Source: Gammaproteobacteria bacterium
GTDB taxonomy: Bacteria; Pseudomonadota; Gammaproteobacteria; Thiotrichales; Thiotrichaceae
Assembly (NCBI GenBank): GCA_018822845.1
Contig: JAHJJD010000028.1
Span: forward strand, 1 to 58,933
Direction of reading: 5' to 3'
Length of the DNA: 58,933 bases
The notes beneath the pieces were generated by a model. The model did no database searches and was not told the DNA's origin. It worked only from the letters and a program-made list of their open reading frames with translations. Positions 1,996 through 52,482 of the stretch are shown here, in pieces (position 1 is the first letter of the stretch; the number at the start of each line of letters is the position of its first letter). Both the position numbers and the translations under genes were made by a program.

Positions 1996-3964
1996 ACTTA
2001 ACTGGATCATCCCGTTACTGTGTATTGCACCCAGTATCCTGCAACCGGCTTGCGCCATAGAAAGCAAAACTGAACTGGAATACGCCCAACAGGTAGTGGT
2101 GCGCGACACCAACAAGGCCATTACCAAGAAACTCGCCAAGGCCGCCACCTATATTGCCGAACTGGACAACCCCGAACTCAAACAAAAAGCCATGGAACAG
2201 ATCAGGGAAGCCCTGCTGACGCTGGAAAATAACCCCCAGGCAGCAGATCAATTTGTCGAAGGCATCAAGCGCATGTCCCAATCAGGGGCTGACAAATTGA
2301 AACAACTCGTACAGAACAAACGGGTACAGGCGTTTGCCCAGGTTGTACTGGATGAAAGCAGTTCCAGCCTGCATGGAGCCAGCGAAAGCAGCCTGAAAAA
2401 ACTGATCGGACTAAGTGACGACGGCATTGATCAGGCAGGCAAACAAACGCTGAATACCCTCAGTGAAATCGACGCAATCGTGGCGAACAAGGGCAAAGTT
2501 CCTGCCCAACTCACCGAAAAGCTCACGGATGCCATCAAGCAATTGCCCCCCAGTCGGGCGCAAGCTGCCCGTAAACTGGTCGCCGACAAACTCAAAGGCG
2601 CATGGCAACCCATCCGCGAACACATTGGCACCGCTGTAGATGGCGGCTTTGTGCTTTGGGATGCCTACAACATCGTCGTCAGCGCAGACAGCGCCGCCGA
2701 AAAAGCCGCGAAAGCGACCGGCACTGCGGTTGGTTACGGGATGGAGGCCAGCGGCGGCCTCGCCATTCAGGCACTGGGCGGCGGTTTCCTGCACGGGCTG
2801 GTACTCAGTTGGTCGGCTGGCAAAGTGAACGAACTGGTTGCCGAAATCATCCTGCTACAACAGGATCGCGCCAATGCGGCTGAAAAAGAACGCTGGGCTG
2901 ACATCGAACTGCGCATGGATGTCATCCGGGGCATGATCAGGGTCGACGAACTGATCAAGGCAGGTGAACTGCAAAAAGCCAGCAACTACCTCGCCAAGGT
3001 GCAAAAGTTTTACTTCAAACACCAGATGCCCGGCGACGGTCTATATGAAAAAATGCAGGAGCTGGAACACAACATCGACAATGCCGGGCGACTGCAACAA
3101 GCCAACGCGATCATTGCCGAAGCCCGTATTCCTTACCTGGAATGCTTCCAGTGGGTTCGCCAGGGCCGCAACCTGACCCAGGCACTGACCTATGTGGAAG
3201 ATGCCCGGCAAATCCTGCAAAAATCCCTGCGCGATTACCCCGAACTCAAAGCCACGCTGGAAAAAGTCGAAGCCTTACAAGCGTTCATCAACAAGCTGAT
3301 CAACAACGCCAGCCCGCTTGGCAAACTGGCTGTCGATGGCCCTGATACCGTCAAGACTGGCGCATACGAAACCTATGAAATCAGTGCCAGCGGCGGCATT
3401 CCCGACTACATCACAACCAACATCGAAGGGCTGGCGCTGCCTACTGGTGCATTCGCCTATTGGCAGGCTCCCGCCGAACCCGGCGAAACCACCGTTACCT
3501 TCAAGATCAAGGACAATATCGGGCAAACCGCCAGTGTGGAAAAGCAAATCACCGTCATTGATGACGCTCCTGAAGCAGACACAGCAACCGGTGAAGTAAT
3601 CCAACTGGAAGGCCCGTCAACGGTAAACCTCAAGCTGCTGGATATGGACTACGCCGTGGTCGAACACACGTTTGTGTACCTCTACCGGGGCGTGGAAGAT
3701 GATTCCGTCATTGAATGGGATTTCGGCGATGGCAGCGAGCCATACCGCTACCCTGCCAATCATGGCAGCAAACAACCCTCCGGCGAATGGCGCTCATCCA
3801 TCATGCAAAGATATTCCAGAACAGGCACATTCCAGCCGGTTGTGCGTTTACTGGATGGCAGCGGCAAGGTGCTTGGCCAAAGCAGTACCCAGATCAATAT
3901 TCAACTGCAACACGTTGAGTATCTATCACCCCCCGCAGGACTGATACCGGAGGGGGACAACTAA
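1988..3964 (+). CDS. Exported large helical protein with a C-terminal PKD-like domain, 658 aa
   Basis: The start at 1988 is inferred from the signal peptide (MNKLNWIIPLLCIAPSIL...ACA) and the 8-nt overlap with the Sel1-like gene. Residues about 30-430 are mostly helical and charged, with a Gly/Ala-rich hydrophobic stretch near residues 245-280 that could insert in or touch a membrane. From about residue 440 the composition becomes beta-rich. VIEWDFGDGSEPYRYP, near residue 575, carries the WDFGDG signature of PKD domains, which are common in surface and adhesive proteins. I infer an envelope or extracellular structural role. The exact function is unknown, and the four-gene cluster contains no enzyme that would define a pathway. 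Confidence 0.75.
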   Translation: MNKLNWIIPLLCIAPSILQPACAIESKTELEYAQQVVVRDTNKAITKKLAKAATYIAELDNPELKQKAMEQIREALLTLENNPQAADQFVEGIKRMSQSGADKLKQLVQNKRVQAFAQVVLDESSSSLHGASESSLKKLIGLSDDGIDQAGKQTLNTLSEIDAIVANKGKVPAQLTEKLTDAIKQLPPSRAQAARKLVADKLKGAWQPIREHIGTAVDGGFVLWDAYNIVVSADSAAEKAAKATGTAVGYGMEASGGLAIQALGGGFLHGLVLSWSAGKVNELVAEIILLQQDRANAAEKERWADIELRMDVIRGMIRVDELIKAGELQKASNYLAKVQKFYFKHQMPGDGLYEKMQELEHNIDNAGRLQQANAIIAEARIPYLECFQWVRQGRNLTQALTYVEDARQILQKSLRDYPELKATLEKVEALQAFINKLINNASPLGKLAVDGPDTVKTGAYETYEISASGGIPDYITTNIEGLALPTGAFAYWQAPAEPGETTVTFKIKDNIGQTASVEKQITVIDDAPEADTATGEVIQLEGPSTVNLKLLDMDYAVVEHTFVYLYRGVEDDSVIEWDFGDGSEPYRYPANHGSKQPSGEWRSSIMQRYSRTGTFQPVVRLLDGSGKVLGQSSTQINIQLQHVEYLSPPAGLIPEGDN

Positions 3965-4090
3965 TCCAGCGTGCGCTTGTAGAACTTCGCCCCCAGCGTC
4001 ACCACCACCAGCATGAACAACAAAATCGGCCACATGTGCGGCCACAGTTCCGGCAATGTGTTGCCCTTGAGCAAAATCCCCCGCATTGAA
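3961..4090 (-). pseudogene. Relic of the 3' end of an ABC-2 permease gene
   Basis: Read on the minus strand this stretch encodes RGILLKGN, then LPELWPHMWPI, then LGAKFYKRTLD and a stop. It closely matches the C-terminus of the intact permease ending at 5039 (RGILLKGN...EIWPHVWPI...LGAKFYKRTLD). Similarity fades beyond about 4090 and no start or upstream domain exists. Exporters of this class often have two paralogous permeases with related C-termini, so this may be the remnant of the second permease or a partial duplication. It abuts the stop of the upstream PKD-protein gene. Confidence 0.8.
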
Positions 4091-4131
4091 CGCGGTGAAG
4101 TCGTCGAAGCAGATCGCATGTTTTGCAGCGG

Positions 4132-4971
4132 TTATTTCTGTGCGCTGACTCCCATCAGATGCTCGACCTTTTGTACGTGCCTGAAGCCTGCCGCCTTGAG
4201 CCGGTGGATGACGCCATCGACAAAGCTGCTGCCTTTCTTGACGATGTGTGGATTGCCGGTGTAATGAAACAGCCGCCCCTCCCGGCGCAGCACCCGGAAG
4301 ATTTCCCGGTAGAATTCTTCGCTGTATAGCTCCCCGGCGAGGGAAAAACGCGGTGGATCGTGAATGACCGAATCAAAGGAAGCCACAGGCATTGTGCCTA
4401 TCAACGCATAGCTATTGCCCTGACGTTGCACAATCCCCGCTTGCCCCAAATCGTTTGACCAAGGATTTTGCGAGCGCAGCCCCATTACCTCGCGGCTCAG
4501 TTCGATGCTGAGTACCTCGCTTGCACCTAATCGGTGGGCAGCGATAGCGGCATAGCCCAATCCGCTACAGCAGTCCAGCACCTTGTCACCCTTGCGCACC
4601 GCTTGTTGCGCCATCTCGGCGGCACTGGCAAAGGGGTCGGTTTCCTTGGAGATATGCATTTTGACACCGCTAATTTCCAGCAGGGGCGCGCCAGCCGTGG
4701 GAACGAGCTTGTAGTAGCCAGCGCTACGGTCTTCCAGGGGATTCATCGCGCCATCGCGACAGAGGAAAATCCTCTGGGTCTTCTTGACGATGCTTTTGAG
4801 TGCGTCGATAGAGAGTCGATTGTCTGCGTCGAGCACCAGGCTCTGGTCACTTAAGGCAAAGTCTTGTTCCGAAAGATTCAGGTCAGTGGAAAGCCGGACG
4901 CAGGAAAGCCCATTGGCGATGGCTTCCAGCGCTTGTCTGGCATTTTCCGTATGAAGGTAGTAGCTGGGCAT
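4132..4971 (-). CDS. Class I SAM-dependent methyltransferase, 279 aa
   Basis: The central domain has a Rossmann methyltransferase signature. KVLDCCSGLGYAAIAAHRLG, near residue 132, is the SAM-binding motif I, followed by the acidic VLSIEL and a HDPPRFSLAGELY motif IV. The D-P-P-R motif IV resembles the predicted methyltransferase group COG2521 rather than DNA methylases. The N-terminal 110 residues look like a substrate domain rich in charged residues. The substrate is not evident. The gene sits between the intact ABC permease and the permease relic, so its arrival or a local deletion may have broken the old exporter operon. Confidence 0.75.
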   Translation of the reverse strand: MPSYYLHTENARQALEAIANGLSCVRLSTDLNLSEQDFALSDQSLVLDADNRLSIDALKSIVKKTQRIFLCRDGAMNPLEDRSAGYYKLVPTAGAPLLEISGVKMHISKETDPFASAAEMAQQAVRKGDKVLDCCSGLGYAAIAAHRLGASEVLSIELSREVMGLRSQNPWSNDLGQAGIVQRQGNSYALIGTMPVASFDSVIHDPPRFSLAGELYSEEFYREIFRVLRREGRLFHYTGNPHIVKKGSSFVDGVIHRLKAAGFRHVQKVEHLMGVSAQK

Positions 4972-14386: not shown

Positions 14387-14827
14387 TCACAACCGATACT
14401 CACTGCTTTCTTCATGAACCGATGGCTTTTTATAGGGAAGGGGCAATTGCGGACACTTCACTGTTTCAAACTCGGGGTCTTTGTGCACCAACGTGGCACC
14501 TTGCAGCAATGCGCTGGCGGCAATCCACGCATCCCCCAATGAAACCCGGCAGGTAGCCTTGAGTTCAGCTGCTTTTTCTAGTAGTTCCACCGACTCGTGA
14601 ACCCATTCGATCGGCAGGGACTTGCATTGCTCATACGCCAGCCGTCCGGCCTGCTCATTCTCATCCTTCCAGACCCGGTAGAGAATTTCCATCAGGCTCA
14701 TGAAACAGGCGAAGCATTTGGCTTGCCCAGTCTCGCATTGATGGAGGATATCGGCGACGGTATCTGCGCCCTCTTCCTCATCCCTTAAGGCAAGCAATGC
14801 GGAGCTGTCCAACAGGTAACGCTTCAT
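14387..14827 (-). CDS. PIN-domain toxin, VapC-like, 146 aa
   Basis: The protein has the PIN nuclease acidic set: D7 in YLLDSSALL, E47 in MSLMEIL, D99 in VSLGDAWIA and D117 in VHKDPEFE. VapC toxins are RNases that cut tRNA or rRNA when their antitoxin is degraded. The start overlaps the stop of the AbrB-type antitoxin gene by 4 nt, the usual translational coupling of such pairs. It ends 6 bp from the convergent aas-like gene. The C-terminal 20 residues (YKKPSVHEESSEYRL) extend past the normal PIN fold. Confidence 0.9.
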   Translation of the reverse strand: MKRYLLDSSALLALRDEEEGADTVADILHQCETGQAKCFACFMSLMEILYRVWKDENEQAGRLAYEQCKSLPIEWVHESVELLEKAAELKATCRVSLGDAWIAASALLQGATLVHKDPEFETVKCPQLPLPYKKPSVHEESSEYRL

Positions 14828-15051
14828 TCCCGCTCCCGGTCGAAAGCACGTTCTGCCAACAGGCGCTCAACTGACCCCTTACGTTTGCTGCTGCCCCGAA
14901 AAGCCTCAATGGGGTTTTCCCGCACCGGAATAACACGGATAGTATTGTTTTCAATAACCCATTCCAGTCGGTCAGTAGCGGAGAGGTGGAAAAATCGCCT
15001 GATTTCGGCGGGAATGACCGTTTGGCCACGTGAGGTAATGGTGCTACGCAT
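14824..15051 (-). CDS. AbrB/MazE-type antitoxin (VapB-like), 75 aa
   Basis: The N-terminus TITSRGQTVIPAEIRRFFHL is a SpoVT-AbrB swapped-hairpin DNA-binding domain. The C-terminal part (AFRGSSKRKGSVERLLAERA) is the flexible toxin-neutralising tail. It precedes and overlaps the PIN toxin gene. An inverted repeat (15065-15093) just upstream is a candidate autoregulatory operator. Confidence 0.88.
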   Translation of the reverse strand: MRSTITSRGQTVIPAEIRRFFHLSATDRLEWVIENNTIRVIPVRENPIEAFRGSSKRKGSVERLLAERAFDRERE

Positions 15052-15064
15052 AGCTATATCCCTT

Positions 15065-15093
15065 GAATTACCTATTTCAAAAAATTGTAATTC
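15065..15093. promoter_or_regulatory. Candidate operator of the toxin-antitoxin pair
   Basis: GAATTAC (15065-15071) and GTAATTC (15087-15093) are perfect inverted copies, starting 14 bp upstream of the antitoxin start. AbrB-type antitoxins usually bind such AT-rich palindromes to repress their own operon; binding here is inferred. Confidence 0.5.
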
Positions 15094-15153
15094 ATCTATT
15101 CAGGGAAAACAATCAATACCGATGGTCATGGGGATGCGTTGGCGTTGCAATCG

Positions 15154-15826: not shown

Positions 15827-16010
15827 GCATCACTTCCGGTCACACCCCCGCCTGACGGCGGCAGGGGCGCTGCCCCTGCACCCCGAAGAGTGGCGCGGTC
15901 TGCTCCACCAAACGCTGGGGCTGCTCCGACACGCCCCTGCCTTTGGCTACGCTGCCCGCGCCACAAGAGCCGCCTCCGGCGGCCTGTTGCGGCTCCGCCG
16001 CCCTGAGCAG
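15827..16010. repeat. GC-rich hairpin cluster downstream of the TIR-nSTAND-FGE gene
   Basis: The stretch opens with another GCATCACTTCCGGTCACACC copy and contains several perfect hairpins. GCAGGGGC/GCCCCTGC with a 3-nt loop lies near 15858-15876, and GCCGCC/GGCGGC and GCGGC/GCCGC stems lie near 15970-16003. It starts 5 bp past the stop of the FGE-domain gene. Such structured DNA directly after a variable region is a known feature of DGR targets, but it is also compatible with an ordinary palindromic repeat. I see no gene in it. Confidence 0.55.
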
Positions 16011-16017
16011 CGGCCTA

Positions 16018-16122
16018 TTGACCTGAGGCCAAGCGGAACCCGATGGAGTTGAACCGGTTACCCGGCGCGTAGTAGTCGCGGCCAGCAGAACGCACGAGCC
16101 TCGGCGAGTAGGCCCACGAGCC
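16018..16122 (-). other. Candidate DGR variable region at the C-terminus of the FGE domain
   Basis: The last 35 residues read GGSWAYSPRLVRSAGRDYY then APGNRFNSIGFRLASGQ. At the positions known to vary in FGE-fold DGR targets, the codons are GCC, TAC, CTC, GGC, GAC, TAC, TAC, TTC, AAC and TCC. All are of the form NNC, as expected if an AAC-rich template were copied with adenine mutagenesis. The invariant frame residues (GGSW, RSA, GFR) use other codons. No reverse transcriptase or template copy is seen in this window, so the source would have to act in trans. The genome's GC bias also favours C in third position. Confidence 0.5.
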
Positions 16123-18102
16123 ACCGCGCAACACGCGGTAGGCGCTATCAGAAGAACTTGCAGAAGAACCCTGCGGGTTCCTTACCGGCTCCGCCGGATA
16201 TTCACCATACACATCCTGACACCACTCATCCACATTGCCATGCATATCGTGCAGCCCGAACGGGCTGGCCGGGAAACTACCGACCGGAGCCGTATTGGGG
16301 TAAGCATCCTTACAGGAAGAATCATTGCAGTTGGCGTTACCCTCCCCAATGGCATTGCCCCACGGATAGGCGGTATCCATCCCGGCGCGGGCGGCATACT
16401 CCCATTCAGCTTCGGTGGGTAAACGGTAAGCCTGGCCTGTGCGTTCATTCAGCCACCCAATATAAGCGGTGGCATCATCCCAACTCACATTCACCACTGG
16501 CTGACGGTAACGCCCCCAACCTTGGTCTGGCGGATAGTCCACGTCCATGCCCCTACGCTGCTGATCCCACACGTAGTAGTCGTATTCCATGAAAGTCACT
16601 TCGTATTTGCCAAGCTGGAAAGGTCGGGTCAGGGTGACTTCGTGGGCAGGCACTTCGCCACCATAACCCACCTTCTCATCACATTTTTCAACACCCTCCA
16701 CATTGTCCCGCCCTTCCACACAGCCCATCGTGAACTTACCCGGCGGGATGACTTCGGACATTTCTGGGAAGGGTGAATACAACCCTGTCGCCCACAACGG
16801 CTTGAGCAACGCATAACCGAACGGCAAGTTTTTGTCAGTCGCCCACCACGACGATTCAGCCAACACTCCCAACAGCCCCAACAGCAACGCCGTTTGCCCC
16901 CATGCCATCCAACGACTACGCCGCAAGTACCGTCCTTCCACACTGTCAGGCCGTGGCCGCAGCTTGCCGAACACCCGCAAGTCACGCCACCCCGCCAGCC
17001 CGAACCAACGCCCCAGCTTTGAGCGTTCCTGCCAGCGTTGCGCATCCACCTGCAACTGCTGGCGCTGGTAATCGCGGTCACGGTTATCAAACACGTAGTT
17101 GAACAACGTAGGCCAGTAGCCGATGGCGCGACCTTGCGCATCCTTGCGGTCACTGGGGCGCACCAGCATTTCGTGGACAAGTTCGACGGAAGCAACCCCC
17201 TCCTCCCCATCCGTCACAATCAAGCGCAACGGCCCTACCTGCCCGCCACCCTGCCGTACCCGTTCCCCCGCCAGTACCTGCACCACCTTTTCGCCCTGCT
17301 TCCCGCCGCCTGCCTCATGCACCGCATCCGCCCGCAACAAGCGCCGCCGCGTATGCCGCCCGCCTTCATTGATGCGCGTCAATGCCAGCAACAAATCCAG
17401 TGCCTGCTTGCGCCCGCGTTCGCCCAGACTGCCAATCAGCGCATCCGCCTGCTTTGCCAGCATCCCCACCACGCCATTATTCTGCTCGTAATACGCCCGG
17501 CTCAAGCGTTGGCTACCGTGGGTTTGCGCCTCGTTCCACAACTCGGCAAGCGCACTTTCCACCAGCGGCAATGCCCCCGGTTCACCCCGTGCATCGCGCA
17601 CCATCGCCTCCACCAACCCCTCATCCACCTGCAAACCCGCCAGCCGCGCCGGATACACAATCAGCTCGCGCAAACCCGCCTCGGTCATGGTCGGCAACAG
17701 GTAATCGCCCTTGAGGGTGTTGTACAGCTTGAGCAGTTCCGGCAGGTATTCAAAACGGTCAAGGAAATCCGAACGGATGGTGCTGATCAAAAACAGCGGG
17801 CAATCCGGGTCAGCCATCGCCGTTGCCAGCAGGCGGTCAAACTGGCGACATTGCACATCCTTCGCTAGCGTGAATAGCTCCTCGAACTGGTCAACCACCA
17901 GCAGCACCGCACTACCTGCGGGTAGCGGACGCAGCGCATGTGCCAGAGCCGTCGGTTTGTCCGCCTGACTGAGCTTGCCCAACCAGTCATCCATGTCTTT
18001 CTGCGGAAATGCCTTCGCCAGCTTTTCTGCCAACATCTCTACAGGCTTTTCGCCCGGTATCAGTGGCTCCAGGATTTTCCAGTCAGCATAGCCAGTACGC
18101 CG

Positions 18103-18105
18103 CTA
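18103..18105 (-). other. In-frame amber codon interrupting the TIR-nSTAND gene
   Basis: On the coding strand the context is GGC TTG TTG TAG CGG CGT ACT. The codons on both sides continue the same nSTAND domain, between the P-loop and the Walker B motif. No frameshift is needed to rejoin the halves. Confidence 0.9.
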
Positions 18106-19023
18106 CAACAAGCCCTGCTCAATCTTCGGTAGCATCCCAGCACGCACCAGCGACGACTTGCCCGCCCCACTGGCAGCGTGGATTTGCAGCCAGCGGTAGT
18201 AACGCGAATGCGGCTGGGCGAAAGATTCCGGCGCAAGGTCTTCGGCATAGCCCAAGCCATGCAAGGCTTGTAGCACTTCCTCATGCCGCCCGAAAAAGCG
18301 GTCGGCGTCTTCACGGCGGAAATAGCTCAAGCCACGGTAGGGTTCGCCCTTCAACTGCGGCGGCGCGGTTTGCAGGGATTCATTTGCCTGCAACGCCTCC
18401 AGCAAACCTTGCGGTAATTCACTACTGTCGGGATGCCAGACCAGCGACTGGATTTGCCGCAGGAATACCGGCAGGTCGTCAAACGCCGCTTCCGGCAACA
18501 ACACGGGGAAAATCGGCAGGCGTTCACGGTCATCATGCGGCGACAACTTGCGGCTGAGGGCGACTTCGACTTCCGCCCCCACCCAGCGTTGCTGTTGCAC
18601 ACCGTCACACCCGACCAGCAGCACGAAGGCGGCGCAGCCTTGCACCGCATCCTGCAAGCTTTTCAGCCAGTTGTCGCCGATGCGGATGGCGTCTTCATCG
18701 CGGAAAACATTGAAACCAGCCTGTATCAAACGCTTGCGCAGCACTTCCGCCGCACTCTTGTCAGTACGGCTGTAGCTGAGAAAGATATGTCCGGTTTGTA
18801 CGGGTTCCGCCATGACGAGTCTCCATGCCCATAAAATCTGTCAGTATTATGGCACATGATAAACAAGCTTATGGAAACAACTTACCCATCCCGTTTTCGC
18901 AGCCCATCAGTCAAATGAAACCACCCATCACCCTTCTGCCCCATGCCATCAATATCCCAGCCCTACAATTCCAATACTAAAAAAGAATTTTTTATTGAGA
19001 AATAATTTCCAGGAATTTCAGCC

Positions 19024-37034: not shown

Positions 37035-37667
37035 TCACGAACGGACGTTCAACACCTCGTCAACCAGACCATATTCGCAAGCAGTAACCGCATCCATGAA
37101 GTTGTCACGGTCGGTATCCTGTTCAATACGCTCCAGTGGCTGTCCGGTATGGTTAGCCAAAACCCGGTTCAACTCCTCGCGCATTTTGAGAATTTCACGG
37201 GCGTGAATTTCAATGTCGGAAGCCTGCCCACGGAAGCCCCCCAGCGGCTGATGGATCATTACCCGTGAATGCGGCACGATAAAACGCTTACCCTTTGCGC
37301 CACCCGCGAGCAATACAGCCCCCATGCTCGCCGCCTGACCAATACACAAGGTACTGACATCGGGCTTGATGAACTGCATGGTGTCGTAAACCGCCATCCC
37401 GGAAGTGATAACGCCACCGGGGGAGTTGATGTAGAGATGAATGTCCTTTTCTGAATTTTCAGATTCCAGAAACAGTAACTGGGCCACAATCAGGTTGGCC
37501 ATGTAGTCTTCGATTTCACCCACGCAGAAAATGATCCGCTCCCGCAACAGGCGGGAGTAAATATCAAAGGCGCGCTCCCCACGAGATGATTGTTCGATGA
37601 CCATCGGTACACCGACTGCACGTGGTTCCATAGGGTTGCGTTCAAACATGGTACTTTGCCTTTTCAT
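37035..37667 (-). CDS. clpP: ATP-dependent Clp protease proteolytic subunit ClpP, 210 aa
   Basis: ClpP is the tetradecameric serine protease core. The catalytic triad is visible: Ser in [14 protein letters not shown], His in [10 protein letters not shown] and Asp in [12 protein letters not shown]. The family start region [20 protein letters not shown] follows a short processed leader. The ATG at 37667 shares one base with the tig stop (TGATG). A downstream ATG at 37649 ([11 protein letters not shown]), with AAGG 9 nt upstream, is an equally good start. Confidence 0.97.
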
Positions 37668-38977
37668 CAAGCAGCTTCAGTCTGCGCCTGCTTGTTTGGA
37701 TTCATCACGCTGTCGAAGTCACGAGCCTCATCGGTAACGGTAGCTTTTTCCATTACCCAGTCAACAATCATTTCTTCCATCACAGCAGCCTCGATTGTCT
37801 GCATTGCCTGACGGTTACCACGGTAGTAATCCATCAACGCTTGCGGGTCTTCGTAAGTGGAAGCGAGTGATTCCAGCATCGCATCAACACGCGCCTGGTC
37901 ACGCTTCAGGTCATTCTGACGAATGACTTCACCAACGATCAAACCCAGCTTCACGCGGCGCTCAGCCTGCGGTGCAAACAGTTCGTCCGGCATATTATCA
38001 GCGGAAGTACCGGTATTTTGCGAGAATTCATCACGAATATAGCGGATTTCATCTGTCACCAGCACTTTTGGCACATCGAACGTGTGCAGCTCTGCCAGAC
38101 CATCCATCACCTGCTGTTTGAGCTGTGACTTGATGGCATTAGCCAGCTCACGCTCCATGTTCTTTTTGACTTCAGCATGAAACTCGTCAACCAGGCCACT
38201 TTCCAAACCAAACTTCTTGATGAAATCTTCATTGACTTCCGGCAGCACAGGTGCGCGCACTTCCTTCATGGTCAGTTTGAACTGGGCAGTCTTGCCCTTA
38301 AGGTTGTCGGCCTGATAGTTTTCAGGAAAAGCCACGTCTATAGTCTTTTCCTCACCAGCTTTCATGCCAACCAGACCTTCTTCGAAGTCTTTCAGCATAC
38401 GGCCTGCGCCCAGCTCTACAGCGTAATCGGTAGCGGCACCACCCTCAAAGGCTTCACCATCAACGGAACCATCGAAGTCGACCTTGATCATGTCGCCGTT
38501 TTCCGCCGCACGCTCAACTGTCTGCCAGTCCTTGTTCTGACCACGAATGACGTCGATCATCTTTGCCAGATCAGCATCGTCAACCGCTGCAACCGGGCGG
38601 GCAATGCTCAATGTTTCCACGCCCGCGATAGTGATTTCAGGGTAAACCTGGAAGCTGGCGGTGTATTCCATATCCTTGCCTTCTTCCATCGTTTTCAAGT
38701 CGATTTCCGGAAGACCCGCGACACGCAGCTTCTCTTGGGCAGCCGCTTCCTGGAAAGTTGAGCCCAGCAGCTTTTCCACAACTTCGTAACGGACAGAATC
38801 GGCATAACGCTTTTTCACCACAGAAAAAGGCACCTTGCCAGGACGGAAGCCATCAATCTTGACGCGCTTGACCATACCCTTCAGGCGCTTGTCGACCTCA
38901 CTATCAATCTTGTCGGCAGGCACTGCCACAGTCATCTTACGGTCAATGTTACCGGTTGTTTCTAAGGAAACTTGCAT
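37667..38977 (-). CDS. tig: Trigger factor (ribosome-associated chaperone), 436 aa
   Basis: Trigger factor binds the ribosome exit tunnel and holds nascent chains. The ribosome-binding signature [20 protein letters not shown] (residues 44-63), a central FKBP-type PPIase domain (residues 150-245) and a helical C-terminal arm are present. The ATG at 38977 ([17 protein letters not shown]) is chosen because it matches the family N-terminus and has GAGG 8 nt upstream. The gene is followed without a gap by clpP. Confidence 0.97.
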
Positions 38978-52369: not shown

Positions 52370-52379
52370 AGACCTGAAG

Positions 52380-52482
52380 AAACCCCTCCTAACCTCCCCT
52401 TGTCAGGGGAGGAACAAGAAGCTTCTGATTCCTCTCTTTCCCCCTCCCCTGACAAGGGGAGGGTCGGGGGGGGGTTTCTTTA
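52380..52482. repeat. Bipartite repeat element, sequence variant
   Basis: The left arm contains CCCTTGTCAGGGGAGG, then the spacer AACAAGAAGCTTCTG, and the inverted right arm contains CCTCCCCTGACAAGGGG. It has the same layout and the same AACAAGAA spacer start as the other elements, but a different arm core (TTGTCAGG). It lies between convergent hemJ and rppH. Confidence 0.85.

What the first reader, a model, noticed from the sequence alone, without database searches (positions are those of the whole stretch)
16015..18813. TIR-nSTAND-FGE conflict protein split by a single amber codon
Seen: one 933-codon minus-strand frame has a TIR domain, an nSTAND-like NTPase and a membrane helix followed by a FGE/C-lectin-fold domain, broken only by TAG at 18103-18105. 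The 696 codons after the stop remain open and conserved in pattern. Known: TIR, nSTAND and DGR-diversified FGE-fold fusions have been described as biological conflict systems, especially in multicellular bacteria. Inference: the gene is either freshly inactivated, switched by read-through or suppression, or in need of a corrected base call. A TIR-plus-P-loop fragment of 236 residues would still be made.
Basis: partly seen in the sequence, partly recalled or inferred. Interest (0 to 1): 0.85.

Follow-up and report, generated by a model that had tools for sequence, protein, structure and literature searches.

The report
Broken gene for a hypermutated sensor
A bacterial gene for a probable virus-alarm protein, whose sensing tip is rewritten by a mutation-making element elsewhere in the same genome, carries one recent stop signal that probably switches it off.

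Summary
A 933-codon minus-strand frame (16015-18813) encodes TIR, nSTAND1 and FGE domains and is broken only by TAG at 18103-18105, inside nSTAND1 between Walker A and Walker B. The stop was seen in no relative: 9 of 9 aligned relatives that cover the codon share one sense residue. No tRNA with an amber anticodon was found (0 of 43). nSTAND1 after the stop was under purifying selection until recently. Best reading: a recent nonsense mutation; a base error is not excluded. The last 129 coding bases are a variable region of a diversity-generating retroelement on other contigs: 22 of 37 template adenines are changed against 4 of 102 other bases. The same template class matches FGE sensors fused to TIR, caspase, kinase and CHAT domains, and an intact TIR-nSTAND1-FGE paralogue has its own template. 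DGR-diversified TIR/nSTAND sensors are already described (PMC10907252), so this is a new, apparently inactivated member of a known kind.

The parts
18103..18813 (-). Truncated open frame: 236 aa plus TAG; TIR domain and the P-loop end of nSTAND1
18821..18824 (-). GGAG, probable ribosome-binding site 7 nt before the ATG, so the 236-aa fragment is probably still made
   Evidence: sequence; inference
18433..18786 (-). TIR domain (TIR_2, residues 10-127); W-x3-E (residues 77-81), where TIR NADases keep the catalytic Glu (recalled), is present in 10 of 10 TIR-bearing rows of the alignment
17020..18342 (-). nSTAND1 NTPase domain, split by the stop: Walker A (from residue 214) before it, Walker B-like VDQFEE (in the stretch from residue 304) after it
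   Evidence: motif names recalled
18103..18105 (-). In-frame amber codon (codon 237), not seen in any aligned relative
16852..16908 (-). Possible membrane helix (residues 636-654), N side more positive (KR-DE +5 against +1), which would put TIR/NTPase inside and FGE outside
   Evidence: weak
16027..16752 (-). FGE-sulfatase / C-type-lectin-fold domain
16018..16146 (-). DGR variable region; remote target of the template at G000:C20:81-227 and C39:37459-37609
16015..16017 (-). Terminal TAG of the gene
15861..15879 (-). Perfect 8-bp hairpin with a 3-nt loop, about 140 nt behind the variable region; a like hairpin (10-bp arms, 90%) lies about 140 nt behind the C39 variable region. Role unknown; not listed as terminator-like

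Best explanation
This is a TIR-nSTAND1-FGE sensor gene, a remote target of a DGR whose reverse transcriptase and template lie on other contigs of the same genome, recently inactivated by a real nonsense mutation. In its intact form (as in relatives and in the paralogue on contig C121) the C-terminal FGE/lectin-fold domain, rewritten by the DGR at template adenines, would bind an invader's molecule; the nSTAND1 NTPase would oligomerise; the N-terminal TIR domain would then consume NAD or make a nucleotide signal and stop growth of the infected cell. Shown: domains, a stop absent from the aligned relatives, adenine-restricted template/variable-region differences, purifying selection on TIR and nSTAND1 on both sides of the stop until recently. 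Inferred: sensing, oligomerisation, TIR activity, membrane topology, and that the stop is real. With the stop, Walker A and Walker B lie on different pieces, the first possible start after the stop is 22 codons on without a convincing ribosome-binding site (my reading), and the sensor is cut off from the effector; only a 236-residue TIR plus P-loop fragment should be made.
For: Stop: 9 of 9 rows covering codon 237 (8 other genomes and the own C121 paralogue) have one and the same sense residue. Same place in the chromosome: G003 keeps both flanks, G006 and G013 the left one. Own-branch changes with three outgroups: before the stop 2 nonsynonymous in 535 sites against 13 synonymous in 170 (ratio 0.05); after it, to residue 600, 4.5 in 813 against 18.5 in 273 (0.08). 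If the part after the stop were neutral since the stop, the stop is younger than about 9-15% of that branch (95% upper bounds, assumed earlier ratio 0.05). DGR: window VR against template C39 22/37 A and 4/102 other (p=3.8e-12), against C20 21/36 and 4/104; over the 129 coding bases the only non-adenine mismatches to C20 are two in the last five codons. Reverse transcriptase frames of 335 aa on C39 and C3; the C39 one shows IGSLTSQ and YMDD (their meaning as DGR and catalytic motifs recalled). The G013 orthologue does not fit its own genome's template cleanly (17/89 non-A mismatches), so the window VR was most likely rewritten on its own lineage. An independent relic of the same family with a stop and internal deletions lies in G011, so loss recurs.
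Against: No reads or strains of the same species could be examined, so a base error remains possible. The selection test cannot tell a very recent stop from one whose later part is still translated. Recombination (G003 is close up to about codon 420 and far after it) blurs the branch counts. In the FGE part the own-branch count is 0 synonymous and 3 nonsynonymous with three outgroups (ratios 0.21-0.36 with two), so strong constraint there is not shown. G009, an 82% relative, shares neither flank in the 14 kb fetched. No function of such a protein is tested in what I read of the papers.
Confidence: 0.76

Rival explanations
1. Base-calling or assembly error: the codon is a sense codon in the real genome and the gene is intact.
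For: The stop is in none of the aligned relatives and the part after it looks selected. The assembly has 130 contigs and breaks at DGR templates, and FGE paralogues are many.
Against: In a control against two sister genomes (47 retained rows, duplicates and antisense shadows included, covering about 20 and 28 kb of the window) the only long conserved gene with an in-frame stop is this one; one short 155-aa frame also has a stop. The nearest paralogue of this part is only 55% identical, so a repeat is unlikely to confuse the assembly at the codon.
Confidence: 0.13
2. Programmed read-through or amber suppression makes some full-length protein.
For: The frame stays open after the stop and its nSTAND1 part was selected.
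Against: 0 of the 43 tRNAs found have an amber anticodon (the assembly is incomplete, so a tRNA could be missing); TAG ends 4 of 26 listed window genes including this one; no aligned relative has the stop, so nothing points to a kept recoding signal.
Confidence: 0.04
3. Functional split: the 236-residue TIR fragment is kept as a free effector or as a dominant-negative decoy, or both halves are made and work together.
For: Start site and TIR motif intact; a short TIR-FGE protein without nSTAND exists in the same genome (C39).
Against: The fragment ends inside nSTAND1 soon after Walker A; no well-placed start follows the stop; no relative shows the split, and the G011 relic is broken elsewhere and deleted inside.
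Confidence: 0.07

Closest known systems
DGR-diversified putative antigen sensors of multicellular bacteria, clade 5D STAND targets (Dore et al. 2024, PMC10907252; abstract, sections 8, 11 part 1, 14 and passages read)
   Same: nSTAND1 or NACHT with a C-terminal FGE/CLec domain carrying the VR; some with an N-terminal TIR; VRs matching a template elsewhere in the genome at non-adenine sites, taken there as diversification in trans
   Different: Another organism; here the target is far from any reverse transcriptase found and is stop-broken ('pseudogene' and 'stop codon' do not occur in that paper's main text); one template class matches sensors fused to five kinds of effector part
Remote variable proteins of cyanobacterial DGRs (Vallota-Eastman et al. 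is my recall of the authors; PMC7517822, passages read)
   Same: CLec variable proteins dispersed away from the reverse transcriptase, with kinase, caspase-like, TIR-like and CHAT-like domains
   Different: Not among the two papers that hold both 'diversity-generating retroelement' and 'nSTAND1'; no broken target in the passages seen
NTP-dependent conflict systems (Kaur et al. 2020, authors recalled; PMC7159879, passages read)
   Same: TIR effectors, FGS/FGE domains and DGR association in predicted conflict systems
   Different: Those are ternary MoxR-vWA systems; none of the seven neighbours scanned has a MoxR or vWA domain
Antiviral STAND (Avs) proteins, as described in PMC10907252 section 11
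   Same: Tripartite plan: N-terminal effector, central STAND NTPase, C-terminal sensor
   Different: That section names tetratricopeptide repeats as sensors and says CLec domains on STAND proteins are not yet tested; no match named Avs in PADLOC, the two pieces searched apart

Membership tests
DGR remote variable protein | Template elsewhere in the genome that differs from the VR almost only at template adenines | tested here: met
   22/37 A against 4/102 other, p=3.8e-12
DGR remote variable protein | DGR-type reverse transcriptase in the genome | tested here: met
   RVT_1 over cut-off on C39 and C3, frames of 335 aa; IGSLTSQ and YMDD in the C39 one, motif meaning recalled; no DGR-specific model was run
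DGR remote variable protein | VR at the 3' end of a CLec-fold gene; template codons that cannot mutate to stops | tested here: met
   16018-16146; 0 of 43 codons of the C20 template can become a stop by adenine changes
DGR remote variable protein | Diversification observed in a population | not testable with these tools
   no reads or strains of the species at hand
STAND NTPase conflict protein (Avs-like) | STAND NTPase with Walker A and B in one chain | tested here: not met
   Both motifs are present but the stop separates them; together in the 9 relatives that cover both
STAND NTPase conflict protein (Avs-like) | Match to a described defence-system model over the whole chain | tested here: not met
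   PADLOC: only partial TIR matches before the stop, none after it; pieces searched apart
TIR NADase effector | TIR fold with catalytic glutamate | tested here: inconclusive
   TIR_2 E=9.3e-18, W-x3-E in 10 of 10 TIR-bearing rows; best solved relative weak (7uwg, E=0.00089); activity untested
Formylglycine-generating enzyme | Enzyme activity on sulfatases | not tested
   Fold family only; a Treponema DGR-type variable protein (2y3c, E=2e-15) is among the solved relatives, behind PvdO and formylglycine-generating enzymes

The most novel reading that the evidence does not exclude
The stop is an autoimmunity escape: a DGR that keeps rewriting the sensor must now and then make a self-reactive variant of a lethal TIR receptor, and cells survive by breaking the effector-to-sensor link upstream while the variable region stays a DGR target. 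The locus would then be a silent, still-diversifying store of sensor variants.
Probability: 0.12. Interest if true: 0.75.

Novelty: new member of a known kind. Interest (0 to 1): 0.42.

Why it matters
It adds a genus (unnamed here) in which DGRs rewrite one sensor module carried by several different death-type effectors, and gives a natural broken receptor beside an intact paralogue. If such lesions proved commoner in DGR targets than in other genes, that would be a handle on whether hypermutated bacterial sensors carry an autoimmunity cost.

Tried and rejected
Amber suppression: tRNA search of the own genome, 43 matches, anticodons read for all 43, none amber. A conserved amber codon: one search lists '1 TAG' for G009, but that is its terminal stop. 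DGR as the maker of the stop: rejected, the stop lies about 2 kb from the VR and no codon of the C20 template can become a stop by adenine changes.

Naming the organism: the genome-contig search (80 of 105 loci kept, best identity 47%, loci not examined further) and the plasmid search (718 records, all under 60%) gave only distant relatives. I suspected a Thiothrix-like bacterium and searched papers with that word (0 papers), but no call names the genus.

Comparing the C16:7260 and C121:43221 stretches as if they were VRs showed no adenine bias, because they read as templates themselves. The matches at C29:8276, C70:29293, C59 and C16:9606 are biased against the C39/C20 templates but not clean (16-25 non-A mismatches) and were not counted as targets of them; the C16 one fits the C16 template.

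Papers: DGR with Thiothrix, 0 papers; DGR with nSTAND1, 2 papers, of which PMC8195603 was seen only in the listing; searches towards broken DGR targets listed 12 of 1,310 and 3 of 3, none about them by title and start of abstract; of these only PMC7517822 was opened, passages only.

Full report
Observation. The window is G000:C9:1-58933 of a 3,999,244-base assembly in 130 contigs. On the minus strand an ATG at 18811-18813, preceded by GGAG at 18821-18824, opens a frame of 236 codons that ends in TAG at 18103-18105; 695 further sense codons follow to a terminal TAG at 16015-16017. Pfam finds TIR_2 at residues 10-127 and nSTAND1 from residue 158; the stop falls between nSTAND1 positions 59 and 65, soon after Walker A; nSTAND1 continues after it and an FGE-sulfatase domain closes the protein. 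Walker B-like VDQFEE is on the far side of the stop. The segment between NTPase and FGE is weakly hydrophobic (1.25; 1.25-1.89 in the ten proteins compared), with more positive charge on its N side in all ten; but stretches inside the NTPase score up to 1.50. An inside-NTPase, outside-FGE topology is plausible, not shown.

Is the stop shared? Of the 11 rows aligned (own, nine other genomes, own C121 paralogue), G031 does not reach codon 237; the other nine relatives all have one and the same sense residue there. Not in that alignment: a second G002 copy (no stop inside), partial or distant matches (G022, G021), and G011. G011 carries an independent relic: a TAA within the TIR part, internal deletions, and a template-like stretch behind it. 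Counting own 2, G002 2 and one each in G003, G006, G009, G010, G011, G012, G013 and G015, 2 of the 12 same-genus copies seen here are broken; the cap on the list may hide more copies.

How old is the stop? By parsimony with G006, G009 and G013 as outgroups, own-branch changes are 2 nonsynonymous in 535 sites against 13 synonymous in 170 before the stop, and 4.5 in 813 against 18.5 in 273 after it up to residue 600. Taking the later part as neutral since the stop gives point estimates of 1-3% of the branch and 95% upper bounds of 9-15% for three outgroup choices, with an assumed earlier ratio of 0.05 (half counts rounded up for the bound). For everything after the stop without the VR, with an assumed ratio of 0.15, the bound is 15%. 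With an assumed earlier ratio of 0 the bounds are 13-28%. The FGE part alone has too few synonymous changes to test (0 synonymous, 3 nonsynonymous with three outgroups). G003 is close to the window gene up to about codon 420 and then diverges, so recombination has shuffled this locus and the figures are rough. Either the stop is recent or the later part is still made.

Read-through or error? Rfam's tRNA model finds 43 tRNAs in the genome; ARAGORN reads every one, none with an amber anticodon; the assembly is not complete, so a tRNA could be missing. TAG ends 4 of 26 genes that I listed, this gene among them, so it looks like an ordinary stop here. As a control for base quality, frames of G003 and G013 were laid on the window. 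The retained rows span about 20 kb (G003) and 28 kb (G013) between 9.0 and 44.7 kb; the rest of the window was not checked. Of 47 retained rows (both genomes pooled; the same gene can appear twice, and antisense shadows were not all removed) three show an in-frame stop: two are this gene and one is a 155-aa G003 frame covered to 61% at 14827-15111; one more row (37561-37852), antisense to a conserved gene, changes frame. This speaks for a real mutation but does not replace reads.

The DGR. DNA of the gene's 3' end finds like stretches elsewhere in the genome. Two of them (C39:37459-37609 and C20:81-227) are templates rich in AAC codons; the C39 one lies just behind the reverse transcriptase gene, not in an FGE gene, though a 182-aa frame happens to run over it. 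Against the C39 template the window differs at 22 of 37 adenines and 4 of 102 other bases (p=3.8e-12); against C20 at 21 of 36 and 4 of 104. Over the 129 coding bases, 13 codons are changed at adenines, 12 with a new residue, and the only non-adenine differences to C20 lie in the last five codons. The same template class fits VRs on C39 (18/36; 3/101), C76 (23/37; 4/102), C29 (21/38; 5/104), C3 (26/37; 4/102) and, less cleanly, C121 (15/34; 8/94) (counts against the C39 template). On C39 the order is target, HRDC-domain accessory gene, reverse transcriptase, template. Contigs C3 and C76 end in the template and C20 begins just before it, which suggests that the template is repeated and breaks the assembly. 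RVT_1 matches lie on C39, C3 and, below the cut-off, C16, not on the window's contig: the window gene is a remote target. Its relatives by template are TIR-FGE (C39), caspase-FGE (C3), kinase-FGE (C76 and C29) and CHAT-FGE (C121): one sensor module, one template class, several effectors. Two more template classes exist: on C16 (two VRs, 18/29; 0/104 and 15/29; 1/104), with a reverse transcriptase remnant, and on C121 behind the intact TIR-nSTAND1-FGE paralogue (17/28; 3/109).

Was the window gene diversified on its own lineage? The orthologue in G013, whose genome holds a template 96% like C20, differs from that template at 18 of 34 adenines but also at 17 of 89 other bases, so it is not a clean target. 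The window VR is clean. The simplest reading is that retrohoming rewrote it after the lineages parted; that the G013 copy merely decayed is not excluded. Whether rewriting went on after the stop arose is unknown. The stop itself is not a DGR product: it lies about 2 kb away, and none of the 43 codons of the C20 template can become a stop by adenine changes. Variable regions of the orthologues in G003, G002 and G010 show adenine bias against the own C121 template (15/26; 8/99, 11/26; 5/99, 15/26; 5/99), those of G009 and G012 against none of the six templates tried.

Mechanism and comparison. Dore et al. 2024 (PMC10907252) describe clade 5D DGR targets with central nSTAND1 or NACHT, C-terminal CLec/FGE and, in some, N-terminal TIR, and propose antigen sensing; they take VRs that match templates elsewhere at all non-adenine sites as a sign of action in trans (sections 8 and 11 part 1 read). 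Remote variable proteins with kinase, caspase-like, TIR-like and CHAT-like domains are known from cyanobacteria (PMC7517822, passages). So architecture, trans targeting and effector variety are each known; this is a new member, found apparently inactivated. Antiviral STAND proteins share the plan but not the sensor. What I read of the papers holds no test of such a protein's function.

Verdict. Observation confirmed. Interpretation as fresh inactivation is best supported (0.76); base error 0.13; functional split 0.07; read-through 0.04. The bold reading, a lesion selected as escape from self-reactivity of a hypermutated receptor, is not excluded and can be tested by counting lesions in DGR targets against non-targets.

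Noticed in passing
G000:C39:33500-38500 (L059), C3 (L261), C76 (L262), C29 (L063), C121:12500-17500 (L064): One DGR template class fits FGE sensors fused to TIR, caspase, kinase (twice) and, less cleanly, CHAT domains; two 335-aa reverse transcriptase frames, the C39 one with an HRDC accessory gene upstream.
   Followed up: partly
L065 (G000:C121:42500-47500): Intact 992-aa TIR-nSTAND1-FGE paralogue with its own adenine-rich template about 230 bases downstream; no RVT_1 match was found on this contig.
   Followed up: partly
L067 (G000:C16:5500-11500): Second template class with two clean VRs on opposite strands and only a remnant reverse transcriptase (127-aa frame) near it.
   Followed up: partly
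window 52374-52412; own C121 paralogue and relatives near residue 538 of the window protein: A palindrome-like repeat of the window recurs inside the C121 paralogue's coding sequence; at the same linker G006, G009 and G013 carry in-frame insertions of other sequence, and the window gene has only a few residues there.
   Followed up: partly
L278 (G011:C19:17000-25500), 3843-4633: Independent relic of the same TIR-nSTAND1-FGE family with a stop, internal deletions and a template-like stretch left behind.
   Followed up: partly
G003:C1:3492284-3495106: Gene at the same chromosomal place whose first about 420 codons are close to the window gene and the rest of another class, which looks like replacement of the sensor half by recombination.
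   Followed up: no
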